From Bacteroidota bacterium (GTDB taxonomy: Bacteria; Bacteroidota; Bacteroidia; Bacteroidales; B39-G9): DNA of 8,117 bases. The notes under the pieces were generated by a model. That model did not search any database and had not been told where the DNA came from. It worked only from the letters and a program-made list of their open reading frames with translations. The stretch is taken from NCBI GenBank assembly GCA_003648455.1, contig QMPG01000131.1:1-8117 (forward strand), given 5' to 3'. Of this stretch, positions 1 to 8,117 are shown one piece after another; the stretch's first letter is position 1, and each line of letters opens with the position of its first letter. A program made the position numbers and the translations under genes.

Positions 1-1497
1 CATTGTTTCATCATCTACACGCTTAAATCCTCTAACATTTTGGATAATTTTTTCCATATCATCACTAATGAAATCATAACCATATTGTTTTTTAGTATTT
101 AATTTAGCAAATTCTTTTGTTTGTGCGTTAAGCTGTAACGTTTCAACTCCAAACGGAGCTGCACATTCAAATTCATAAGGCAATTCAATTACTTTGTTTA
201 TTTTGTCTGTTCCAATGTAATAGCTGTCAAGCAAAAGTACTTTTGAGCCGTCTGCCATATGATAAATAAAACGCAAGTAACATTCTTTATTGGCACGAAC
301 ATGAAGTTTCATTCTTTCTGCTTCGGTAAAAATAAGATTTTCATTTCCTTTGTTTGTCCATACATCAATAAGCAGACCGCCGTTTATTACTTCATTTTCG
401 CTAAAAGCTTTCATATTTGCATAAGCCTTTTCAAAGTTCTCAGGCTTAAACGAAATTGAATTATTTTCTAACCACGAAATCGGCAATTCTTTTTCAACGC
501 TTGCAAGAGTTTTTCCTGAGTTAATGTCTTTTAAAATAGCAATAACTTTTAAGTTATCTTGATTTTCCCAATATGTACCTGTTAACAGTAAATTGTTTTT
601 TTGATTATCATTAATTGGTAAATTAGCTTTTGTATTTATATTATAACCGGATATTTGTATGAGTTTTTGCTCAAGCATTTTGTATAATCTGCGAGAAAAT
701 TCACTTCCCATTTTTGTGTCTTGATAAGTAAAAGGAACCAGCCTTATGGTTTTATTAATTTTATTAGTTTGCATTTTAAAACCATTGGATAATAGATAAC
801 ATAAATCTGTAAGAGAAATATTTTTATCGGTTTCAATTTTTGATATTTCCGAATTAACTTCAAGTTTTAGTTTGTTGGTTTTTTCAAAATCAACTTGAGC
901 TGCTTTTAATTTACTTATTGCAACTAAAAAAGTTTGTGATTGTTCAATATCTCTAAAAATGGGAGAGCAATTATATAAAGTTGTCAATGCTTTTTGCTTG
1001 TTGTTATCCGACAAATATTTTTTTGCAGTCTCAATGTTTGATGAAATTTGCGAGAGTTTTTTTTCAATATTCTGCTTGTAGTGTTTGCTTAGCGCTGATT
1101 TTTTCACATATGCCAATACGTAAGCAGTTTTTTTTCTTTTATGAAAATATGTTTCGGTTTTTAATCCCACCAGATTAACATTTGAAAAAGAAACGCTCGA
1201 TTGTTTAAACGATTGACTAAATTTATTGTCAATCTCAGAAGTTTGCAAAATTGTTGTAGTTGCTACTGTAACTTGCATTGCTTCGCTAATTTGAGTTTTT
1301 ACCTGATTTTTTAATTTGGCAAAAACCTCATTAGGAACTTTATCACCTTTAATCTTTTCCCACGAAAATCCCACAAAATAAAACGACTGAGGAAATTTTT
1401 GTTTTCTTGAGTTATAGTCTATCCATTCTGGTTCCTGGCTGTATATTATGTTTGCAGATAAGCAAATTAATAAAAAAGAAATAAGTATTTTTTTCAT
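1..1497 (-). CDS. Secreted DUF4384 domain protein, C-terminus cut by window edge
   Basis: An open frame of 499 codons runs leftwards from an ATG at 1497 with no stop before the window edge. I read it through codon by codon. The N-terminus (MKKILISFLLICLSANIIYS) is a signal peptide, probably cut near S20/Q21; Cys12 lacks a proper lipobox, so export as a soluble periplasmic or outer-surface protein is more likely than a lipoprotein. Residues 22-130 (PEWIDY, YFVGFSWEK, then YVLAYVKK) resemble the N-terminal part of LPP20-like/DUF4384 proteins of Bacteroidetes. A Lys/Gln-rich, probably helical stretch follows at about 130-230. The C-terminal DUF4384 domain covers roughly 375-475, with VRANKECYLRFIYHMADGSK at 400-419 and CAAPFGVETLQL at 445-456. 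Family ends normally lie soon after this, so perhaps 10-30 residues are missing. Function is unknown. It is divergent from the metal cluster and probably unrelated to it. Confidence 0.85.
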   Translation of the reverse strand, partial: MKKILISFLLICLSANIIYSQEPEWIDYNSRKQKFPQSFYFVGFSWEKIKGDKVPNEVFAKLKNQVKTQISEAMQVTVATTTILQTSEIDNKFSQSFKQSSVSFSNVNLVGLKTETYFHKRKKTAYVLAYVKKSALSKHYKQNIEKKLSQISSNIETAKKYLSDNNKQKALTTLYNCSPIFRDIEQSQTFLVAISKLKAAQVDFEKTNKLKLEVNSEISKIETDKNISLTDLCYLLSNGFKMQTNKINKTIRLVPFTYQDTKMGSEFSRRLYKMLEQKLIQISGYNINTKANLPINDNQKNNLLLTGTYWENQDNLKVIAILKDINSGKTLASVEKELPISWLENNSISFKPENFEKAYANMKAFSENEVINGGLLIDVWTNKGNENLIFTEAERMKLHVRANKECYLRFIYHMADGSKVLLLDSYYIGTDKINKVIELPYEFECAAPFGVETLQLNAQTKEFAKLNTKKQYGYDFISDDMEKIIQNVRGFKRVDDETM

Positions 1498-1622: not shown

Positions 1623-1654
1623 TTTGGATTATGAACATAAGTTCATTATCTTTG
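1623..1654 (+). promoter_or_regulatory. Bacteroidetes-type promoter for the DUF134 gene
   Basis: TATCTTTG at 1647-1654 matches the Bacteroidetes -7 consensus TAnnTTTG in full. A TTTG at 1623-1626 lies 20 bases upstream of it, matching the -33 TTTG element at normal spacing. Transcription would begin at about 1660, leaving a leader of about 60 bases before the ATG at 1722. This is the best promoter I see in the window and is a good candidate to drive the plus-strand cluster. Confidence 0.7.
1631..1646. promoter_or_regulatory. Candidate operator: ATGAAC-ATAA-GTTCAT inverted repeat
   Basis: Two perfect six-base inverted arms around ATAA sit in the spacer between the -33 and -7 boxes of the DUF134 promoter and end directly against the -7 box. 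A dimeric helix-turn-helix protein bound here would block RNA polymerase. The natural candidate is the DUF134 protein encoded just downstream, acting as an autorepressor. That assignment is inference; I saw no second copy of the motif in the window. Confidence 0.45.
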
Positions 1655-1721: not shown

Positions 1722-2195
1722 ATGGCGAGACCGGAAAAAGATAGAATTGTACTTAATCCTCCGTTATTTTCGGAGTTCAAACCCGTTGGTGTTCCAAGCA
1801 ATACGTTAATTCAGGTTTTGCTTACACTTGATGAGTATGAAGCTTTTCGTTTGTCTGATTATCTTGGTTTATCGCAATTAGAGGCAGCGAGAGAAATGGA
1901 AATATCGCGTCCTACATTTACAAGACTTATTGAAAAAGCAAGAAAAAAAATTGCAGATTTTATAGTTCAAGGGAAAGTTCTGACAATTGAAGGTGGGAAC
2001 ATCCATTTTAGACGAAATATTATTAAATGTTTAGATTGTGGACATATGTTCCAAATAAATATGGACGAGTCTCTTATTGTGTGCCCCGATTGTAAATCGA
2101 AAAATTTAATTAACCTAGCAGGTGGATTTGGTCATGGCATCTGTTGTGCTAATAGAAATCATAGAAGATTAAGAAATAGAGGTAGAAAAAAATAA
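1722..2195 (+). CDS. DUF134 (UPF0251) helix-turn-helix regulator with zinc ribbon
   Basis: A 157-residue protein opening MARPEKDRIV, the typical DUF134/UPF0251 start. Residues 20-92 carry the family core: FKPVGVP, LTLDEYEAFRLSDYLGLSQ, EAAREMEISRPTFTRLIEKARKK, then KVLTIEGG. The segment at about 48-76 is a sigma-like helix-turn-helix (LSQLEAAREMEISRPTFTRLI). A C-terminal extension holds C103-x2-C106 and C121-x2-C124, a zinc-ribbon or metal/Fe-S site, then CC at 141-142 and a very basic tail (NRNHRRLRNRGRKK). Family members are predicted DNA-binding proteins usually found next to NifX-like and MinD-like genes, as here. The cysteine set could make DNA binding respond to metal or redox state; that is inference. 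No Shine-Dalgarno is seen, which is normal for this phylum. It is probably the local regulator, perhaps acting on the inverted repeat at 1631-1646. Confidence 0.88.
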   Translation: MARPEKDRIVLNPPLFSEFKPVGVPSNTLIQVLLTLDEYEAFRLSDYLGLSQLEAAREMEISRPTFTRLIEKARKKIADFIVQGKVLTIEGGNIHFRRNIIKCLDCGHMFQINMDESLIVCPDCKSKNLINLAGGFGHGICCANRNHRRLRNRGRKK

Positions 2196-2250
2196 AATTA
2201 CATATAAGAAAATTTTAAGAATAATAAATTTTGTACTAATATTAATTAAA

Positions 2251-2258
2251 AAAGGAGG
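2251..2258 (+). promoter_or_regulatory. Strong Shine-Dalgarno AAAGGAGG before the DUF5320 gene
   Basis: AAAGGAGG lies five bases before the ATG at 2264. None of the other genes in the window has a comparable site, and Bacteroidetes generally do not rely on Shine-Dalgarno pairing. It fixes the start codon and suggests either unusually strong translation or descent from a lineage that uses such sites. Confidence 0.75.
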
Positions 2259-2263
2259 TTATC

Positions 2264-2578
2264 ATGCCAAGAGGTGATAGAACGGGACCTTCAGGAAATG
2301 GTCCTATGACAGGAAGACGAATGGGTTATTGTGCAGGCAATAACCAAGCCGGATATATGAATTCCGGATATGGCAACTATGGTCGAGGCTTTGGATATGG
2401 TCGAGGCTTTGGGCATGGAAGAGGCTTTGGATACGGCAATAGAAATTTCTATGATGAGAGTATCCCAAATATTTCTGAAAAGACATTGCTTGAAAATGAG
2501 ATTAATTCTCTAAAAGATCAATTGTCGAATTTAGAAATAAGACTTTCTGAAATCAACAATAATGATAAAGAAAGCTAA
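2264..2578 (+). CDS. DUF5320 protein, Gly/Arg-rich with C-terminal coiled coil
   Basis: A 104-residue protein with the family signature MPRGDRTGPSGNGPMTGRRMGYC at 1-23, including the single cysteine C23. The middle (34-60) is Gly/Tyr/Arg-rich and contains three tandem GRGFG(Y/H) units. The end (about 70-98) is a predicted coiled coil, EKTLLENEINSLKDQLSNLEIRLSEI, with heptad-spaced Leu/Ile. DUF5320 genes commonly neighbour DUF134 and NifX-family genes in anaerobes; function is unknown. The coiled coil suggests oligomers and the Gly-rich part is probably flexible. It is 68 bases downstream of the DUF134 gene, probably in the same transcript, and is followed by a hairpin terminator. Confidence 0.85.
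   Translation: MPRGDRTGPSGNGPMTGRRMGYCAGNNQAGYMNSGYGNYGRGFGYGRGFGHGRGFGYGNRNFYDESIPNISEKTLLENEINSLKDQLSNLEIRLSEINNNDKES
2381..2434 (+). repeat. Three tandem 18-base units inside the DUF5320 gene
   Basis: Units at 2381-2398, 2399-2416 and 2417-2434 follow GGTCGAGGCTTTGGATAT with few differences. Each encodes GRGFG(Y/H). Near identity at DNA level, including the same codons, points to recent tandem duplication and possible length variation between strains. Confidence 0.85.
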
Positions 2579-2586
2579 AAATTGTT

Positions 2587-2616
2587 AAGTAGGCCATAAA
2601 ATATGACCTACTTTTT
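2587..2616 (+). terminator. Hairpin terminator or attenuator after the DUF5320 gene
   Basis: The stem pairs 2587-2598 (AAGTAGGCCATA) with 2602-2613 (TATGACCTACTT), 11 of 12 paired, around a three-base loop. The T-rich run is short (about five T, 2612-2616), so termination may be partial. It starts 8 bases after the stop codon and separates the highly translated DUF5320 gene from the following genes. Confidence 0.6.
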
Positions 2617-2646
2617 AGTATTTAATTTAATTAAAAAAAATATAAA

Positions 2647-2868
2647 ATGAGAAATTCAAGAAATTCAGGTACCCCGGGAAGTGGTAGAGGACTTGGTAAT
2701 GGAGGCGGTCGTGGACGAAACAACGGCGGAGCTTTTGGCACAGGAGGTTTTTGTGTTTGTGCTAAATGTGGCGAAAAAATTCCTCACCAACAAGGCGTTA
2801 AATGTACTTCTGTGAAATGTCCTAAATGTGGGCATGTTATGATAAGAGAAGAACTACTTAATAAGTAG
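2647..2868 (+). CDS. Small Gly-rich protein with six-cysteine zinc ribbon
   Basis: A 73-residue protein. Residues 1-34 are Gly/Arg/Asn-rich and probably disordered (SGRGLGNGGGRGRNNGG). Residues 35-66 form a compact metal site: C36-x-C38-x2-C41-G, H47 in IPHQQGVKC, C53, then C58-P-K-C61-G. The pattern CxCxxCG...C....CPxCG is a zinc ribbon or rubredoxin-like knuckle. I recall very similar short proteins beside DUF134 and NifX-family genes in anaerobes, with no assigned function. The tail resembles that of the DUF5320 protein next door, suggesting similar surroundings or a shared partner. No Shine-Dalgarno is visible. The ATG was chosen because the Gly-rich N-terminus is typical and no earlier in-frame start is apparent. 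Confidence 0.75.
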   Translation: MRNSRNSGTPGSGRGLGNGGGRGRNNGGAFGTGGFCVCAKCGEKIPHQQGVKCTSVKCPKCGHVMIREELLNK

Positions 2869-2889
2869 AGATTATAAATTATGTAATTT

Positions 2890-3133
2890 AATGTATCCTC
2901 TCAAAATTGTTGATATTGTTAGTATATAATGTGATTACCATTCACTTTATTATACAATAGTTAGGGTCTGCACAAAAACTCCTATATTGTCATTTCGACT
3001 GAAAGGAGAAATTTCATAACACAGTGTATATAAGCTGAATGAGATTTCTCTCCGCCAGCTGGCGGATCGAAATGACAGCATAATTAAAATTTCAAGGGTT
3101 TTCGTGCAAGCATTAGTTAAGAGAGGATACATT
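2890..3133. repeat. Composite palindromic region with 13-base inverted ends
   Basis: AATGTATCCTCTC (2890-2902) and GAGAGGATACATT (3121-3133) are exact inverted repeats 244 bases apart outside to outside. Inside lie a second weaker pair (about 2914-2934 against 2942-2958, based on ATTGT...GTGA) and a third pair (2969-2981 TGCACAAAAACTC against 3096-3108 GGGTTTTCGTGCA, 11 of 13 matching), which encloses the element at 2988-3077. The region fills nearly all of the gap between the zinc-ribbon and NifX genes. It looks like a small non-autonomous mobile element, or one repeat inserted into another. I cannot see a clean target-site duplication; TTTA occurs near both ends. Confidence 0.6.
2988..3077. 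repeat. 90-base hairpin element with TGTCATTTCGA ends
   Basis: Ends TGTCATTTCGA (2988-2998) and TCGAAATGACA (3067-3077) are perfect 11-base inverted repeats. Inside, GGAGAAATTTCAT (3005-3017) imperfectly matches the complement of AATGAGATTTCTCTCC (3038-3053). The palindrome TCCGCCAGCTGGCGGA sits at 3051-3066 and shares its core with 1528-1543. This matches the style of repetitive palindromic units scattered through Bacteroidetes genomes. It has no coding capacity. Confidence 0.75.
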
Positions 3134-3162
3134 TTTAATATAATAATTAAAAACATAAACAA

Positions 3163-3495
3163 ATGAAATTCGCAATACCAACAACTGAAGGAAGATTATG
3201 TGAACATTTTGGACAATGTGAGAAGTTTGCAATAATTGAGACTAAAGGTAGTACTGTTATTTCAGAAAGTTTTGTTTCACCTCCGGAACATCACGAGAGA
3301 GTTTACCCTGGATTTTTGGCTCAGCTTAAAGTTGATGTAATAATTTCGGGAGGCATAGGACAAAAAGCAATAGATGCTTTTAATGAAAAAAATATTAAGG
3401 TTTTTGCAGGAGTTAATTCCGATTCCCCTGTTAAATTGGTTGTAAATTATTTAAACAATCAGTTAGCAGGAGGAATGAACTTATGCGATCATTAA
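3163..3495 (+). CDS. NifX/ORP-family small metal-cluster-binding protein (first copy)
   Basis: A 110-residue protein of the dinitrogenase iron-molybdenum cofactor-binding fold (NifX/NafY/NifB C-terminal; PF02579-like). It opens MKFAIPTTEGRLCEHFGQCEKFAIIE, the family's first strand and HFG loop, has SPPEHHERVYPG at 39-50, the glycine loop ISGGIGQKAID at 61-71, and ends GGMNLCDH. Possible ligands are C13, H15, C19, H43, H44, C108 and H110. Length is normal for stand-alone members, which include the Mo-Cu cluster protein ORP of Desulfovibrio. It most likely binds a metal-sulfur cluster or precursor. The GTG start of the first ATPase lies 28 bases downstream, so they are probably co-transcribed. 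No -7 box is evident directly upstream; expression may depend on readthrough of the palindromic leader. Confidence 0.88.
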   Translation: MKFAIPTTEGRLCEHFGQCEKFAIIETKGSTVISESFVSPPEHHERVYPGFLAQLKVDVIISGGIGQKAIDAFNEKNIKVFAGVNSDSPVKLVVNYLNNQLAGGMNLCDH

Positions 3496-3523
3496 TTGAA
3501 ATTATAATTTAAAAATTAGATAA

Positions 3524-4384
3524 GTGAAAATAGCAATTGCAAGTGGCAAAGGAGGCACAGGTAAAACAACCCTTTCAACAAATTTATCAAACTTTTTTGC
3601 TGAAGAGGAAAATGTTGTTCTTGTTGATTTAGATGTTGAAGAACCGGATTCCGGTTTATTTCTTAATGCTGAGTTAATTAGTAAAGAAGATAAATTTAAG
3701 ATGATTCCCAAATGGGATAAAGATAAATGCACTTTATGTGGCTTATGTCAAAAAGTTTGTAACTATAATGCTGTAATTCAACTTGGTAATGAGATTATGG
3801 TTTTCCCCGAATTATGTCATAGCTGTTACGCTTGTTCGGAGTTGTGTCCTACATCCGCATTGCCAATGTTGTCAAAAAAAATGGGAGAGTTGAAACAATT
3901 TAAATCAAATAATTTGGTTTTTATTGAAAGTCGATTAGATATTGGTGAAGAACAAGCAGTGCCATTAATAGCACAAACAAATGAGTATGTTGACAAGCAT
4001 TTCCCTAACGAAATTAATAAAATTTTTGATTGCCCTCCCGGCACATCATGTCCTGTTATAGAAGCAACAAAAGATGCAGATTTTGTGATATTAGTTACAG
4101 AACCTACTCCTTTTGGACTTAATGATTTAATTCTGGCCGTTGAGACCATGAAAACACTCAATAAAATTTTTGCCGTAGTAATTAACCGTTATGGTATTGG
4201 GAATGATGATGTAATAGAGTACTGCGAAAAAGAAAAAATTCCTATTATTGCAAAAATTCCTAACAGTCGTAAAATTGCAGAACTTTATTCAAATGGCAAG
4301 TTAATTTATAAGGATATTCCGGAAGTTAAGAAACAATTTGAAAATATTAAAAATTATATTTCTAAGATAAAAAAAGACAAATAA
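3524..4384 (+). CDS. MinD-type P-loop ATPase with inserted 2x[4Fe-4S] ferredoxin domain (first)
   Basis: A 286-residue protein starting at GTG 3524; the P-loop strand (KIAIASGKGG) begins directly after it, and no in-frame ATG precedes it. Deviant Walker A SGKGGTGKTT is at 7-16, with the MinD/Mrp signature lysine, and the switch motif DLDVEEPDSG is at 35-44. Two ferredoxin motifs follow: C69-x2-C72-x2-C75-x3-C79 and C98-x2-C101-x2-C104-x3-C108, each predicted to bind [4Fe-4S]. Walker B is FDCPPGTSCP at 168-177, then VTEPTPFGLND at 191-201. This is the soluble 'ATPase with ferredoxin insert' class found beside NifX-like proteins in anaerobes and in the ORP complex. It probably couples ATP binding and dimerisation to electron or cluster transfer. 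The next gene, a paralog, starts two bases after its stop. Confidence 0.92.
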   Translation: MKIAIASGKGGTGKTTLSTNLSNFFAEEENVVLVDLDVEEPDSGLFLNAELISKEDKFKMIPKWDKDKCTLCGLCQKVCNYNAVIQLGNEIMVFPELCHSCYACSELCPTSALPMLSKKMGELKQFKSNNLVFIESRLDIGEEQAVPLIAQTNEYVDKHFPNEINKIFDCPPGTSCPVIEATKDADFVILVTEPTPFGLNDLILAVETMKTLNKIFAVVINRYGIGNDDVIEYCEKEKIPIIAKIPNSRKIAELYSNGKLIYKDIPEVKKQFENIKNYISKIKKDK

Positions 4385-4386
4385 GA

Positions 4387-5265
4387 ATGAAAGAGATTGT
4401 AGTTATTTCTGGCAAAGGAGGCACAGGAAAAACATCTATTACGGCATCGTTTACATATCTTGGAGGTAAAGATGTTGTTGTAGCTGATTGTGATGTTGAT
4501 GCTGCTGACATGCACCTTCTTTTGCAACCGAATTTTGCAAAATCGAAAGATTTTTATAGCAGTGAAATTGCAAAAATTGACCAAAATAAATGTATTAAGT
4601 GTGGGAAATGTGCTGATGTTTGTCGTTTCAATGCTATTCCAATAATTAATGAACAGTATACAATTAATTCTCTTAATTGTGAGGGCTGTGGTTATTGCTC
4701 ACATGTTTGTCCTGTTGATGCAATAACCATGGAATTACAGAATGACGGCAAATGGTTTATTTCTAATACTCGATTTGATAATATTCTTGTTCATGCAAAA
4801 CTTGGTATTGGTTCTGACAATTCCGGCAAGCTTGTTGCAAAAGTCAAAAACGAAGCAAAAAAAATTGCAAAAGAAAAAAATAAAAATTATATAATTATTG
4901 ATGGATCGCCCGGAGTTGGATGCCCTGTAATATCTTCAATTTCAGGTGCTGATTTTGTGGTTCTTGTTACAGAGCCGACAGTCTCGGGTTTGCACGATTT
5001 AGAACGAGTTTATAAATTGGTGAAAAAATTTAATATTAATGCCGGGTGTATTATTAACAAGGCTGACCTTAATCTTCAGATATCAAAAGAAATTCAAGAA
5101 TTCCTTAAAAAAGAGGATATTGTTTTTATTGCCAATCTGCCTTATGATGAAACTTTTACCAAAGCAATGACCGCTGGTCAAACAATTGTTGAGTATGGTG
5201 AAAATAATTTAAAGAATATTATTATTGAAAGTTGGGATAAAATAAAAGAATTAGTGGAGAATTAA
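4387..5265 (+). CDS. MinD-type P-loop ATPase with inserted 2x[4Fe-4S] ferredoxin domain (second)
   Basis: A 292-residue paralog of the previous protein with the same domain order. Walker A SGKGGTGKTS is at 8-17, the switch motif DCDVDAADMHLLL at 34-46, ferredoxin motifs at C69/C72/C75/C79 and C98/C101/C104/C108, and Walker B IIDGSPGVGCP at 170-180 with C179, then VTEPTVSGLHD at 194-204. All eight cluster cysteines fall at the same residue numbers as in the first copy. The switch region differs (DCDVDAADM against DLDVEEPDS), marking the two distinct subfamilies usually found as neighbours. The two-base gap implies translational coupling and roughly equal amounts, so a heterodimer is likely; this is inference. 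Its start is supported by the P-loop strand beginning at residue 2. Confidence 0.92.
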   Translation: MKEIVVISGKGGTGKTSITASFTYLGGKDVVVADCDVDAADMHLLLQPNFAKSKDFYSSEIAKIDQNKCIKCGKCADVCRFNAIPIINEQYTINSLNCEGCGYCSHVCPVDAITMELQNDGKWFISNTRFDNILVHAKLGIGSDNSGKLVAKVKNEAKKIAKEKNKNYIIIDGSPGVGCPVISSISGADFVVLVTEPTVSGLHDLERVYKLVKKFNINAGCIINKADLNLQISKEIQEFLKKEDIVFIANLPYDETFTKAMTAGQTIVEYGENNLKNIIIESWDKIKELVEN

Positions 5266-5284
5266 TAATTAAAAAGATTAATTG

Positions 5285-5292
5285 TAAATTTG
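5285..5292 (+). promoter_or_regulatory. Possible internal -7 box TAAATTTG
   Basis: TAAATTTG matches TAnnTTTG in full and lies 94 bases before the second NifX ATG, in the only sizeable gap between the ATPases and that gene. I see no convincing TTTG about 20 bases upstream, and such AT-rich matches arise easily by chance. Confidence 0.3.
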
Positions 5293-5303
5293 CAAATAAA
5301 ACA

Positions 5304-5332
5304 ACTCTTACGGATTTGTAATTAGTAAGAGT
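5304..5332 (+). other. Hairpin in the leader of the second NifX gene
   Basis: ACTCTTAC (5304-5311) and GTAAGAGT (5325-5332) form a perfect eight-base stem around a 13-base loop. There is no T tract, so it is not a classical terminator. It may stabilise or process the mRNA between the ATPase genes and the NifX gene, or form the leader of a transcript from the possible promoter at 5285. Confidence 0.5.
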
Positions 5333-5385
5333 GTAAAGTGAAAAGAGAAGTAATTAAATATCAATATAATATAAAAAATAAAAAT

Positions 5386-5727
5386 ATGAAAATTGCATTC
5401 ACAACAAAAGGAATAGAATGGGATTCAATGATGGATCCTCGTTTTGGAAGAACAGAGTTTATTTTAATATATGATGAGGAAAAAGATGAATTAGCTAATT
5501 TTGACAATAGAGATATTGAAGGCGAAGCTCATGGTGCAGGACCAAAAACAGCACAACAATTATTTGAGATGAAACCTGATGTATTAATCACAGGTAACGG
5601 ACCAGGCGGAAATGCTGCAACAGTATTGGAAAAATCAGGAACGAAAATTTTTGTTGGAGCAGGACAAATGACTGCCAAACAAGCTTATGATGCATATAAA
5701 AAGAATGAATTAAAGGAATTTAAATAG
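5386..5727 (+). CDS. NifX-family small metal-cluster-binding protein (second copy)
   Basis: A 113-residue protein counted from ATG 5386. A longer in-frame reading from GTG 5338 adds 16 Lys/Asn/Tyr-rich residues, but the NifX fold begins exactly at MKIAFTTKGIEWDSMMDPRFGR, so the ATG is preferred. The usual HFG loop is replaced by RFGR (19-22). H49 lies in the loop EAHGAGPKTAQ, the glycine loop reads LITGNGPGGNAA (67-78), and the end is KKNELKEFK. There is no cysteine at all, so a cluster or metal would have to be held by His, Met and Asp groups or non-covalently. It lies 120 bases after the second ATPase and is followed by a strong terminator, closing this operon. A role as a carrier or partner of the ATPase pair is inference. 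Confidence 0.85.
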   Translation: MKIAFTTKGIEWDSMMDPRFGRTEFILIYDEEKDELANFDNRDIEGEAHGAGPKTAQQLFEMKPDVLITGNGPGGNAATVLEKSGTKIFVGAGQMTAKQAYDAYKKNELKEFK

Positions 5728-5752
5728 TATTATAAATAATATTATTTTTAGC

Positions 5753-5775
5753 CGTCATTGAGATGAATAATGACG
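5753..5775. repeat. CGTCATT...AATGACG palindromic repeat (copy 1)
   Basis: CGTCATT (5753-5759) and AATGACG (5769-5775) are perfect inverted arms around nine bases, followed by AAACAATC. A related copy lies at 6367-6389, followed by AAGTAATC. This style (CGTCATTgCGAGG...TGACGAAgCAATC) is a common dispersed bacterial intergenic repeat. It sits just before the terminator. Confidence 0.65.
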
Positions 5776-5799
5776 AAACAATCATTAAATGAAAGAGGT

Positions 5800-5836
5800 G
5801 CAAGGTTTTATTTAGTAAAAACCTTGCGGTTTTTTT
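5800..5836 (+). terminator. Rho-independent terminator after the second NifX gene
   Basis: GCAAGGTTTT (5800-5809) pairs perfectly with AAAACCTTGC (5818-5827) around an eight-base loop, followed by GG and seven T (5830-5836). It should end the transcript carrying the ATPases and NifX genes. The TTG start of the next gene is only 22 bases downstream, so that gene must use readthrough or a start very close to its own coding region. Confidence 0.85.
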
Positions 5837-5858
5837 CTATTAATAAATTACAACTGAT

Positions 5859-6344
5859 TTGAAAAATATTATTTATAAACCAATTGGGATAATCCACTCC
5901 CAAAACAAAACACCTGAAGGAACCCCAATACAGGCATCTTCAGCAAAAGATATTAAAGGTGTAATAGAATTATATCCTGAATTTATTGACGGGTTAACAG
6001 ACCTTGACGAATTTTCTCATATAATTTTATTATACCATTTTCATTTATCTAAAGAAGCTAAATTAATCTCAAAACCTTTTATGGATGATGTGTCACATGG
6101 AGTATTTGCAACTCGTGCACCAAGCAGACCTAATCATATTGGGATTTCTTATGCTAAAATTGAAAAAATTGAAGGAAATAAAATCTTTGTAAACGGAATT
6201 GATATTGTAGATGGTACGCCACTTCTTGATATTAAACCTTATGTTCCTCAATTTGATTATAACAAGGTGGAAAAAATCGGTTGGCTTAATAAAAATGTTC
6301 GTAAACTGCCGGAAGCAAAAGATGATGGCAGATTTGTAAAATAG
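5859..6344 (+). CDS. trmO: TrmO/TsaA-type SAM-dependent tRNA (t6A37) methyltransferase
   Basis: A 161-residue protein. TTG 5859 is taken as the start because the family's first strand (KNIIYKPIGIIHS) follows at once and the next in-frame Met is M75. Family motifs in order are PIGIIHS (8-14), TPIQASSAKDIKGVIEL (22-38), DGLTDLDEFSHIILLYHFH (44-62), HGVFATRAPSRPNHIGIS (80-97) and DGTPLLDIKPYVPQFD (118-133). TrmO (PF01980) uses S-adenosylmethionine to N6-methylate t6A37 of tRNA-Thr. Here the conserved RPNPIG loop reads RPNHIG (H93), and the protein lacks the longer C-terminal domain of E. coli TrmO, as many bacterial and archaeal members do. Stand-alone TsaA proteins also recur in metal-related clusters, so another substrate is possible. 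Its position between two NifX genes is noteworthy. Confidence 0.85.
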   Translation: MKNIIYKPIGIIHSQNKTPEGTPIQASSAKDIKGVIELYPEFIDGLTDLDEFSHIILLYHFHLSKEAKLISKPFMDDVSHGVFATRAPSRPNHIGISYAKIEKIEGNKIFVNGIDIVDGTPLLDIKPYVPQFDYNKVEKIGWLNKNVRKLPEAKDDGRFVK

Positions 6345-6366
6345 AATCTAAATAATTCATTTTTTT

Positions 6367-6389
6367 CGTCATTACGAGGAAGTATGACG
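6367..6389. repeat. CGTCAT...ATGACG palindromic repeat (copy 2)
   Basis: CGTCAT (6367-6372) and ATGACG (6384-6389) flank ACGAGGAAGT-like sequence and are followed by AAGTAATC. Aligned with 5753-5775, the arms and the trailing GACGAA...AATC agree. It fills part of the gap after the methyltransferase gene; the rest of 6390-6510 is AT-rich with no clear signal. Confidence 0.65.
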
Positions 6390-6510
6390 AAGTAATCCTT
6401 TGATTTTTATATTGAAATTTTGAAACTTAGGTATTTGTTTTAATTTTATTGACAAATGAATTATGTTTTTTATTAATAAAGAAATCCAAAAATATTAAAA
6501 ATATAATAAT

Positions 6511-7356
6511 ATGAAGACTTATTTAGATTGTTTACCATGTTTTATGCAGCAAGCACTTAGGGCGGGACGAATGGCTACTAATGATGAAAAAAAGTTAAAA
6601 GATTTACTAAGTAGCGTTGGTGAGATGATAAAGGATATCCCTATGCAAAATACACCACCCGAGACAGGAGATGCAATTTATAAAAAAGTGAGAGAAATTA
6701 CAGGAGTAAACGACCCTTATGTAAAAATTAAAGAAGAAAATATAGCAGAAATATTGGCATTGTATCCCGAGATGAAAAAAATTGTCGACAGCTCAGATGA
6801 TAAAATTTTGACTGCCATTAGATTTGCAATTGCAGGAAATGTTATTGATTTTGGTGTTAACAAAGAGTTTGATATTGAACAGGAAATAAAAAATAATTTA
6901 GACAAAGAATTTGCAATTTTCGATTACCAAGAATTTATACAACAGCTTGAAAAGGCTAATTCAATTCTTTATATTGGAGATAATGCAGGAGAATCTGTTT
7001 TTGATAAAATTCTTATCGAAGAATTGGGCAAAAAAGTAACTTTTGTCGTTCGCGATATACCTGTTATTAATGATGCTACTAAAGAAGATGCTATTGCTTC
7101 GGGAATTGGAGAAGTAGCAGAAATTATATCCTCGGGAACTTCAGCACCGGGAACAATATTAAATTCATGTAATGATGATTTTCTCGAAAGATTTAAAAAT
7201 GCCGATTTGGTAATAAGCAAAGGACAGGGAAATTATGAGGGCTTATCTAATGTAGAGCGCACGGTATTTTTTCTACTAAAAGCAAAATGCCCAATTATTG
7301 CTAATGATATAGGAGTAAAAGAAAACGATATTGTTTTAAAAGGAATTAACATTTAA
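6511..7356 (+). CDS. DUF89 (AF1104-like) metal-dependent phosphatase-family protein
   Basis: A 281-residue protein, normal for the prokaryotic DUF89/ARMT1-like subfamily (COG1578, PF01937). The N-terminal CxxC is in DCLPCFMQQALRAGR (C7, C10). AIAGNVIDFGV is at 106-116. The metal/catalytic region has YIGDNAGESVFDKILIEEL (154-172; D157, N158, E161), VVRDIPVINDATKEDA (179-194; N187, D188) and ISKGQGNYEGL (235-245). Members studied in other organisms are metal-dependent phosphatases proposed to remove damaged phosphometabolites; the substrate here is unknown. The CxxC near the N-terminus is typical of this subfamily and may bind metal. A NifX-family gene follows after nine bases, so the two probably form an operon. 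This pairing suggests a link to the metal-cluster genes upstream, though DUF89 may act on an unrelated phosphoester. Confidence 0.88.
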   Translation: MKTYLDCLPCFMQQALRAGRMATNDEKKLKDLLSSVGEMIKDIPMQNTPPETGDAIYKKVREITGVNDPYVKIKEENIAEILALYPEMKKIVDSSDDKILTAIRFAIAGNVIDFGVNKEFDIEQEIKNNLDKEFAIFDYQEFIQQLEKANSILYIGDNAGESVFDKILIEELGKKVTFVVRDIPVINDATKEDAIASGIGEVAEIISSGTSAPGTILNSCNDDFLERFKNADLVISKGQGNYEGLSNVERTVFFLLKAKCPIIANDIGVKENDIVLKGINI

Positions 7357-7365
7357 ATTAAAATT

Positions 7366-7770
7366 ATGACTTTAAAATTTGCATTTGCAACAGATGATGG
7401 TAAGACATATATTGACAGGCATTTTGGCGATGCCGATTATTATGACATTTATGAGATTTCATCAAACGAAAGTAAATTCATAAAAAGAATTGTTAACACA
7501 ACCGAAGAAGATGATGAAGAGATTCATGCTGACCCTAAAAAAGCGAAGAGTGTTGTTGATTTGTTGAAAATAGAAGCTGTTCAAGTTGTAATATCAAAAG
7601 TATTTGGGCCAAATATCAAACGAATTAAAAAGAAATTTGTTTGTGGATTATTTAATGATCAACAAATATCTGACAGCATTAAAACTATTCAAGAGAAGAT
7701 GAATGTTTTTACTGATGAGTGGGAAAAGGGAGAAATACGAAATCATATTAATTTAAAAACCGGAATATAA
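7366..7770 (+). CDS. NifX-family protein with extended C-terminus (third copy)
   Basis: A 134-residue protein, about 20 longer than the other two NifX-like copies. It opens MTLKFAFATDDGKTYIDRHFGDADYYDIYEI, with the HFG loop at 19-21, followed by an acidic stretch TTEEDDEEIHADPKKA (45-60; H54), a second half beginning IEAVQVVISKVFGPNIKRI (69-87), and one cysteine at C93 in FVCGLF. The usual glycine loop (SGGIG/TGNGPGG) is altered to SKVFGPN. The C-terminal extension (about 108-134, EKMNVFTDEWEKGEIRNHINLKTGI) is unlike the other copies. The fold suggests metal-cluster or cofactor binding, but the ligand set differs, so the function may have diverged. It is coupled to the DUF89 gene. Confidence 0.82.
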   Translation: MTLKFAFATDDGKTYIDRHFGDADYYDIYEISSNESKFIKRIVNTTEEDDEEIHADPKKAKSVVDLLKIEAVQVVISKVFGPNIKRIKKKFVCGLFNDQQISDSIKTIQEKMNVFTDEWEKGEIRNHINLKTGI

Positions 7771-7788: not shown

Positions 7789-7814
7789 CGGGTAGCTTAT
7801 ATTTGATTATAATT

Positions 7815-8117
7815 ATGATTTCCTAAACAAAGAAATCCGTGGACAAAAGATTTCGTGTTAATCCGTGAAATCCGTGGACAAATAATATGATGTTAATAAC
7901 ATAGAAAATAAAATTAAATTGAATAAATTAGCCAAATGAAAATATAATTAAATTCATAATTGGAGCAGGACTTAATATGATTTCCTAAACAAAGAAATCC
8001 GTGTTAATTTGTGAAATCCGTGGACAAATAATATAAATAGATAATATAATTTTAGAATTTAGGTTTAAATTGAATAAATTAGCTGAATGATTATATAATT
8101 AAATTCATAATTAGAAC
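7815..8117. repeat. Two diverged copies of a roughly 150-base repeat, non-coding right end
   Basis: Unit 1 begins at 7815 and unit 2 at 7977, both with ATGATTTCCTAAACAAAGAAATCCGTG. Shared blocks follow: GTGTTAATCCGTGAAATCC (7855 on) against GTGTTAATTTGTGAAATCC (8001 on), then CGTGGACAAATAATAT in both, and AAATTGAATAAATTAGC (7916 on and 8067 on) with ATATAATTAAATTCATAATT. Unit 1 has about 16 extra bases because AAATCCGTGGACAAA occurs twice in it (7833 and 7869). Unit 2 is cut by the window edge, so more copies may follow. No open frame, tRNA or CRISPR structure is seen in 7771-8117. Confidence 0.8.

What the first reader, a model, noticed from the sequence alone, without database searches (positions are those of the whole stretch)
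1722..7770. Possible non-nitrogenase metallocluster system: DUF134, DUF5320, Zn ribbon, three NifX-like proteins, paired MinD/ferredoxin ATPases, TrmO, DUF89
The sequence directly shows cluster-binding-fold proteins, ATPases with eight Fe-S cysteines each, and two cysteine-rich small proteins on one strand in about 6 kb. From known families, a related set makes up the Desulfovibrio orange-protein loci (NifX-family ORP with a Mo-Cu-S cluster plus MinD-like ATPases). There the regulator is sigma54-dependent; here a DUF134 protein is in that position. Adding TrmO and DUF89 to the set is less familiar to me. Assembly or trafficking of an unidentified metal-sulfur cluster is the inference.
Basis: partly seen in the sequence, partly recalled or inferred. 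Interest (0 to 1): 0.7.

Follow-up and report, generated by a model that had tools for sequence, protein, structure and literature searches.

The report
Anaerobe iron-sulfur module with DUF134 switch
This piece of an uncultured Bacteroidales genome carries a gene set, widespread in anaerobes, that probably builds, stores and hands on iron-sulfur units, and comparing relatives points to a DNA switch site for its unknown regulator and a short peptide tag shared by several of its proteins.

Summary
The core (DUF134, DUF5320, a six-cysteine protein, NifX, two MinD/ferredoxin ATPases, NifX) is of the known ORP kind: NifX2 matches ORP structure 2wfb (E 2e-8). A predicted terminator separates it from TrmO. 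DUF89 is a frequent neighbour (19 of 80 loci), TrmO a rarer one (6 of 80). Two findings go further. (1) DUF134, a family without known function, has a predicted operator on its own promoter, ATGARC-N4-GYTCAT. Fetched loci with the strict site ATGARCATATGYTCAT lie at DUF134 or system genes in 19 of 19 cases (2 were training sites); looser sites outside the first sample mostly do not (1 of 7, 0 of 11). In two samples 12 of 12 such DUF134 genes precede a NifX gene. Against it: four sampled Bacteroidota with the ATPases show no such site there. (2) A 23-residue N-terminal tag heads DUF5320, Cys-rich proteins and NifU scaffolds and tracks the ATPases (same 5 of 198 genomes; 65 both, 3 and 10 alone, of 118). 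Best model: Fe-S assembly and storage, IssA-like; no metal is shown.

The parts
1623..1654 (+). Predicted promoter of the DUF134 operon: TTTG (1623-1626) and TATCTTTG (1647-1654) with the operator between them
   Evidence: Sequence. TAnnTTTG directly follows the operator in 5 of the 7 system loci printed (not in L013, L015). That these are Bacteroidetes -33/-7 elements is recalled, not tested.
1631..1646 (.). Predicted DUF134 operator ATGAACATAAGTTCAT (perfect 6-bp arms, 4-bp spacer)
   Evidence: the same 16-mer stands upstream of DUF134 in L002. Its spacer ATAA differs from the ATAT of the strict genome-wide pattern.
1722..2195 (+). DUF134: sigma-region-4-like HTH plus a C-terminal four-cysteine region; predicted regulator
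2264..2578 (+). DUF5320: N-terminal tag, Gly/Arg/aromatic-rich middle, acidic C-terminal end (coiled-coil-like by reading)
   Evidence: PF17253 93 bits; pI 9.9 for residues 1-66, 4.4 for the rest
2264..2341 (+). Shared N-terminal tag (first 26 residues of DUF5320)
   Evidence: Alignment A2
2587..2613 (.). Terminator-like hairpin between DUF5320 and the Cys-rich gene
   Evidence: z -2.7 for 2578-2640
2647..2868 (+). Six-cysteine small protein ('Zn ribbon'); in relatives this type often starts with the tag, here the start is degenerate
   Evidence: No family match; six Cys and one His invariant in 12 aligned sequences
2987..3078 (.). Long intergenic hairpin between the Cys-rich gene and NifX1
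   Evidence: z -5.9 for 2960-3090
3163..3495 (+). NifX1, of the type that forms the C-terminal domain of MrpORP; H15, C19, H43, C108, H110 conserved
   Evidence: NF041136 positions 265-365, 105.6 bits; alignment A3; AF2 pLDDT 90.2; fold matches 2yx6, 1o13, 2wfb, 1p90
3524..4384 (+). MinD1: P-loop ATPase with inserted two-cluster ferredoxin (GTG start)
   Evidence: PF01656 65.7 bits and Fer4
4387..5265 (+). MinD2: second P-loop ATPase with inserted two-cluster ferredoxin
   Evidence: PF01656 47.6 bits and Fer4
5386..5727 (+). NifX2, ORP-like (ATG start; GTG at 5338 possible)
   Evidence: PF02579 44 bits; PDB 1rdu E 1.9e-12, ORP 2wfb E 2e-8
5799..5838 (+). Predicted intrinsic terminator closing the core operon
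   Evidence: z -5.7
5859..6344 (+). TrmO-family protein (neighbour, separate unit; TTG start)
   Evidence: TIGR00104 127.8 bits, cut-off 93.25
6511..7356 (+). DUF89/ARMT1-like phosphatase family (frequent neighbour)
   Evidence: PF01937 245.5 bits; PDB 2g8l E 4e-44
7366..7770 (+). NifX3, acidic NifX variant directly after DUF89
   Evidence: PF02579 36 bits; 7 of 80 loci

Best explanation
The core operon encodes an anaerobic iron-sulfur assembly, storage and delivery module. The paired MinD/ferredoxin ATPases use ATP and their [4Fe-4S] clusters to load and unload Fe-S units on small NifX carriers. DUF5320 is a stand-alone polycationic, aromatic partner that binds polymeric or surplus Fe-S, as the IssA tail is proposed to do, and docks through an N-terminal tag that relatives also place on NifU scaffolds, Cys-rich proteins and, more weakly, ferredoxins and a NifX domain. 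Where DUF134 is present it represses the operon from a site on its own promoter and reads the state of a partner NifX. Shown by sequence: the parts, their recurrence, the fusions, tag co-occurrence, the operator-like sites. Inferred: Fe-S as cargo, storage, docking, repression, NifX as sensor. DUF89-NifX3 and TrmO lie in separate units and may serve related upkeep.
For: Core in loci from many phyla. Fusions in relatives: tag-NifU_N (L007, P0133), NifU_N-NifX (P0169, P0181), DUF134-NifX (L047, L198, partly by reading), Mrp-NifX (by reading), NifX with G/R-rich tail and ferredoxin (L046), both ATPases in one 596-residue frame (G007). MrpORP binds Fe-S in both domains and transfers it to Orp3-Orp4-Orp8 (PMC6345978, abstract and passages). 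Tag and ATPases co-occur: the same 5 of 198 Bacteroidota genomes; 65 both, 3 tag only, 10 ATPase only, 40 neither of 118 (Fisher p 2e-18). 95 tag proteins of 88 aa or more: Gly 30%, Arg 12%, F+Y+W 19%, median pI 10.8 of the first two thirds; IssA tail 10% cationic, 20% aromatic, 21% Gly, pI 10.7 (PMC5524996, passages). Strict operator loci: 19 of 19 at DUF134 or system genes, 2 of them training sites; 12 of 12 DUF134 genes so found in samples B and C precede a NifX gene, in L203 after one small gene.
Against: No metal is demonstrated. The window's NifX proteins lack IssA's tail; the tail-like protein is separate. An arsenic-efflux-type permease and His-rich NifX proteins beside DUF134 fit metal-ion homeostasis as well. 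In sample B none of the five ATPase genomes has the searched site: G007's has another spacer, and the fetched system regions of the other four (G101, G112, G116, G230) hold no site with exact arms; only G116 shows DUF134 there. Loose-only sites are mostly elsewhere (1 of 7 and 0 of 11 at DUF134), and reversed-pattern controls gave 0, 2 and 3 sites. DUF134 is found in 33 of 80 loci, so other regulators must serve the rest. The window's own site has a variant spacer. The tag-ferredoxin and tag-NifX cases score only 20.6 and 19.2 bits.
Confidence: 0.5

Rival explanations
1. Mo-Cu (or other heterometal) sulfide cluster system: the NifX proteins hold an ORP-type Mo-S-Cu cluster that the ATPases build or move.
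For: NifX2 matches ORP 2wfb by sequence (E 2e-8) and NifX1 by fold (TM 0.74). ORP's copper-molybdenum cluster is cited in PMC6345978 (reference list seen).
Against: Relatives link the system to NifU scaffolds, ferredoxins and Mrp domains, which are Fe-S parts. Among the recurrent neighbour clusters that I annotated none is a Mo or Cu handling family; not all clusters were annotated.
Confidence: 0.15
2. Metal or metalloid stress response: DUF134 and its NifX partner sense a toxic or scarce metal, and the ATPases and Cys-rich proteins sequester it.
For: An ArsP_2/arsenic_eff permease family recurs in 6 loci (cluster c14) and stands beside NifX3 in L001 and L002; a permease that scores 122 bits against SaoE (cut-off 325) follows DUF134 in L197; the NifX beside DUF134 in nine Bacteroidota loci has a His-rich insert.
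Against: No exporter in the window; the NifU, ferredoxin and Mrp fusions are not explained by export or sequestration.
Confidence: 0.15
3. Dedicated maturation of one unknown Fe-S enzyme or cofactor (NifB-like chemistry with the radical SAM protein of some loci), not storage.
For: A radical SAM family recurs in 17 loci and a methyltransferase family in 8 (clusters c4 and c13; Pfam).
Against: No single target enzyme stood out among the recurrent clusters; the window has no radical SAM gene.
Confidence: 0.12
4. The operator belongs to another regulator (LexA- or ArsR/SmtB-type sites share GAAC-N4-GTTC or TGAA/TTCA cores; recalled) that controls DUF134.
For: Resemblance of the core, from memory. 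An ArsR-like gene lies divergent in L205 (by reading).
Against: 19 of 19 strict loci lie at DUF134 or system genes; all 12 genomes with a site in sample A have DUF134 (36 of 50 overall); in 8 of 9 sample-B loci the site lies 2 nt after a TAnnTTTG string just before DUF134 (by reading).
Confidence: 0.1

Closest known systems
Desulfovibrio ORP (orange protein) operons, with MrpORP
   Same: NifX-family ORP and Fe-S proteins of an anaerobe-specific set; NifX1 is of the MrpORP C-terminal-domain type; MinD-like ATPases (their presence in the Desulfovibrio operons is recalled)
   Different: DUF134 in place of the sigma54 activator and IHF; no Mrp domain in the window; DUF5320 with tag and a six-cysteine protein in the operon; DUF89-NifX3 and TrmO beside it
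IssA of Pyrococcus furiosus (thioferrate storage)
   Same: NifX-fold carrier together with a Gly/cationic/aromatic-rich polycationic part of similar make-up
   Different: In the window carrier and tail-like part are separate proteins; the tail-like protein has an N-terminal tag and an acidic end; thioferrate not shown
Nitrogenase cofactor carriers NifX/NafY/NifB
   Same: Same fold (NafY 1p90 and the NifX of 9ian found by structure)
   Different: NifX3 scores 36.8 against the NifX cut-off of 112; no nitrogenase gene in the window

Membership tests
ORP-type system | NifX-family protein related to ORP 2wfb | tested here: met
   NifX2, E 2e-8
ORP-type system | Paired MinD-like ATPases with ferredoxin insert | tested here: met
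   a direct comparison with the Desulfovibrio Orp ATPases was not made
ORP-type system | sigma54-dependent regulator | tested here: not met
   DUF134 instead; a sigma54-type regulator cluster (by reading) occurs in 12 of the 80 loci (c8)
ORP-type system | Mo-Cu-S cluster | not testable with these tools
   Needs metal analysis and spectroscopy
MrpORP (NF041136) | Mrp ATPase fused to NifX, cut-off 450 bits | tested here: not met
   NifX1 105.6 bits, C-terminal part only
NifX (TIGR02663) | Curated cut-off 112 bits | tested here: not met
   NifX3 36.8 bits; NifX1 and NifX2 not listed at E 1e-3
IssA | NifX domain with polycationic Gly/aromatic tail in one protein | tested here: not met
   Window NifX proteins are 110-134 residues long (113 for NifX2 from its ATG) without such a tail; the composition is found in DUF5320
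IssA | Thioferrate | not testable with these tools
   Needs XAS and EPR
DUF134 (PF02001) | Cut-off 27 bits | tested here: met
   84.1 bits
DUF5320 (PF17253) | Cut-off 27 bits | tested here: met
   93 bits
TrmO (TIGR00104) | Cut-off 93.25 bits | tested here: met
   127.8 bits; tRNA methylation itself not testable here
Damage-control phosphatase (NF040824) | Cut-off 440 bits | tested here: not met
   193.7 bits; the wider Pfam ARMT1-like domain is met

The most novel reading that the evidence does not exclude
A modular, anaerobe-wide iron-sulfur depot: a 23-residue N-terminal tag (MPxxDxTGPxGxGPxTGRxxGxC) recruits scaffolds, ferredoxins, Cys-rich proteins and NifX carriers to DUF5320, a polycationic Gly/Arg/aromatic organiser that wraps or condenses polymeric iron sulfide; paired MinD/ferredoxin ATPases fill and empty it; and, in many lineages, DUF134 with a NifX domain as its cluster gauge represses the regulon from TTATGARCATATGYTCATAA. 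DUF134-NifX would then be a general two-gene metal-sulfur sensor, present even where the ATPases are absent.
Probability: 0.2. Interest if true: 0.85.

Novelty: new variant of a known kind. Interest (0 to 1): 0.66.

Why it matters
How anaerobes store and hand on iron and sulfur is poorly known. If right, protein families without function (DUF134, DUF5320, the six-cysteine protein) gain testable roles, a regulator gains a DNA site that a gel shift can check, and a short tag gives a way to list further parts of the system from sequence alone.

Tried and rejected

Paper searches for DUF5320 (2 papers), DUF134 (22 papers, 20 listed), UPF0251 (1 paper), GPMTGR (none) and at least two of COG1149/COG1433/COG1342/DUF89 (none) showed no account of the operator or tag; only listings were seen, except single passages of PMC10434189 and PMC5886521, which give none. 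(ORP; SaoE and organometal; IssA) were listings too. The 2011 ORP operon paper is not held.

Training overlap: the profile came from nine sites (W, L001, L002, L005, L007, L009, L013, L014, L017). Four of the 13 sites of sample A (G005, G009:C163, G013, G014) are training sites, two of them among its 8 strict loci; samples B and C are independent.
Full report
What is there. The window (a contig for which no whole genome is held) encodes on the + strand DUF134, DUF5320, a six-cysteine small protein, NifX1, two MinD-type ATPases each with an inserted two-cluster ferredoxin, NifX2, then TrmO, DUF89 and NifX3. The best named relatives of MinD1 in the list are Bacteroidales proteins (75% identity). 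A predicted terminator follows NifX2 at 5799-5838, so the first seven genes are best read as the core operon, TrmO as a neighbour, and DUF89-NifX3 as a pair. A weaker hairpin (2587-2613) and a long one (2987-3078) lie inside the core.

How widespread. By their titles they come from Bacteroidota, Calditrichota, Marinimicrobia, Spirochaetota, Campylobacterota, Cloacimonadota, Planctomycetota, Chloroflexota, many deltaproteobacterial groups, Omnitrophota and archaea. By six-frame profile search of these 80 loci: NifX types 76, DUF5320 54, Cys-rich 48, DUF134 33, DUF89 19, NifX3 7, TrmO 6. From rows found in 50 of the genomes (45 DUF89, 34 TrmO) about 0.35 and 0.26 loci would be expected by chance. 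In a sample of 118 genomes from the phylum of a Desulfobacterales MAG, DUF89 lies within 10 kb of a tag gene in 7 and of MinD in 3 of the 63 DUF89 genomes. So DUF89 is a real but optional associate and TrmO a rarer one. Other recurrent neighbours: a radical SAM protein (17 loci), NifU_N scaffolds (cluster c6, 14 loci), pyridine nucleotide-disulfide oxidoreductases (13), sigma54-type regulators (12, by reading), MBL (11), CGGC (10), methyltransferases (8) and ArsP_2 permeases (6).

The operator. Upstream of DUF134 in the window stands ATGAACATAAGTTCAT (1631-1646); the same or similar palindromes stand before DUF134 in relatives from at least five phyla by record title. A profile from nine such sites found others outside its training loci, among them before DUF5320 (L015), NifX2 (L053), a DUF134-NifX fusion (L047) and a DUF89-DUF5320 operon (L020, 16 bits). 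The exact pattern TGARCATATGYTCA was then searched in whole genomes. Sample A, 50 genomes that hold the system: 13 sites in 12 genomes, reversed control 0; all 13 lie at DUF134 or other system genes, some by my reading of the printed frames. The weakest are G041 (about 1 kb from two tag genes, with another gene between) and G019 (before two genes whose tags score under 20 bits). Four of the 13 are training sites. Sample B, 198 Bacteroidota genomes: 17 sites in 16 genomes, control 2 sites; 15 genomes were fetched as loci (G162 was not), and 9 of the 15 loci lie directly before DUF134. Sample C, the 118 genomes: 14 sites in 11 genomes, control 3 sites; 3 of 14 lie before DUF134, in two genomes. 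Split by strictness, loci with ATGARCATATGYTCAT are 8 of 8, 8 of 8 and 3 of 3 at DUF134 or system genes (17 of 17 without the two training sites); loci with only the looser form are 5 of 5, 1 of 7 and 0 of 11. Two genomes are shared between samples (G007, G049).

What speaks against it. None of the 16 site genomes of sample B is one of its five ATPase genomes. G007 has a site with another spacer before DUF134; in the system regions fetched from the other four (G101, G112, G116, G230) no site with exact arms ATGARC-N4-GYTCAT is present, and only G116 shows DUF134 there. So the site follows DUF134, not the ATPases, and at least one DUF134 must use a diverged site. The window's own site has ATAA in the spacer and would not match the strict pattern.

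Where the site lies. In the window and in L002, L005, L007 and L053 it is followed at once by TAnnTTTG (5 of 7 system loci printed; not L013, L015); in 8 of the 9 sample-B loci (not L203) a TAnnTTTG string ends 2 nt before it, by reading. Both are places where a bound protein would block transcription. In samples B and C 12 of 12 DUF134 genes so found are followed on the same strand by a NifX-type gene (profile E 1e-7 or better; in L203 one small gene lies between); in the nine of sample B the NifX has a His-rich insert. With the DUF134-NifX fusions (L047; L198) this makes a NifX domain the likely sensor.

The tag. DUF5320 begins MPxxDxTGPxGxGPMTGRxxGxC (A2, 29 sequences). In the 50 genomes of the loci, 40 have a match at E 0.01 (A2 was built from some of them). 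In 198 Bacteroidota genomes 5 have it at E 0.001, the same 5 that have the ATPases at E 1e-40 (Fisher p 4e-10, or 2e-8 without the centre genome). In the 118-genome sample 65 have both, 3 the tag alone, 10 the ATPases alone, 40 neither; 57 of 99 tag places lie within 10 kb of a MinD place. Among 137 distinct tag proteins of 20 bits or more in the fetched loci, 133 begin Met-Pro at the tag. Besides DUF5320-like proteins the tag heads 10 Cys-rich proteins, a NifU_N scaffold in L007 and another, P0133, a ferredoxin-type protein (L122, 20.6 bits) and, below the cut, a NifX protein (L136, 19.2 bits); L028 shows a degenerate tag on a ferredoxin. A docking role is inference.

Likely working. IssA stores Fe and S as thioferrate on a NifX-family domain with a Gly/cationic/aromatic tail, and a related 'IssX' clade is uncharacterised (PMC5524996, abstract and passages). 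Several NifX2 relatives carry a Gly/Arg-rich tail, some with a DUF5320-like end, and DUF5320 looks like that tail as a separate, tagged protein. MrpORP, whose second domain is of the NifX1 type, moves Fe-S to ORP proteins (PMC6345978, passages). M. voltae raises two IssA homologues on pyrite (PMC8516115, PMC9431491, passages). From these I infer Fe-S loading, storage and delivery, with DUF134 as repressor where present. NifX1 keeps H15, C19, H43, C108 and H110 (90% or more of 21 sequences) as possible ligands; C108 and H110 lie in a tail of low model confidence.

Verdict.

Noticed in passing
L203-L205, L207-L212 (Bacteroidota genomes without the ATPases): DUF134 followed by a NifX-type gene with a His-rich insert behind the same operator: a minimal two-gene module.
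   Followed up: partly
P0169, P0181: NifU_N scaffold fused to a NifX domain in one protein.
   Followed up: partly
L046 (ORF L046_12): NifX2, Gly/Arg-rich stretch, helical-looking end and two-cluster ferredoxin in one 291-aa protein.
   Followed up: no
L197:1533-2916: DUF134 behind the operator, followed by a permease related to SaoE (below its cut-off).
   Followed up: partly
L194:1533-2273: A 246-aa protein (DUF364-like, name recalled; no NCBIfam match) behind an operator copy about 1 kb from two tag genes.
   Followed up: no
L203:1500-3014: A genome without the ATPases in which DUF134 is followed by a protein starting MPLGDGTGP, a NifX and a ferredoxin.
   Followed up: no
window 7808-8115: Imperfect direct repeats of 46 and 63 nt, about 150 nt apart.
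   Followed up: no
window 1-1497 (- strand): Divergent gene with a signal-like start and a DUF4384 match below its cut-off.
   Followed up: no
window 2987-3078: Strong 92-nt intergenic hairpin holding TCCGCCAGCTGGCGGA, nearly the palindrome TCCGCCAGTTGGCGGA seen upstream of DUF134.
   Followed up: partly
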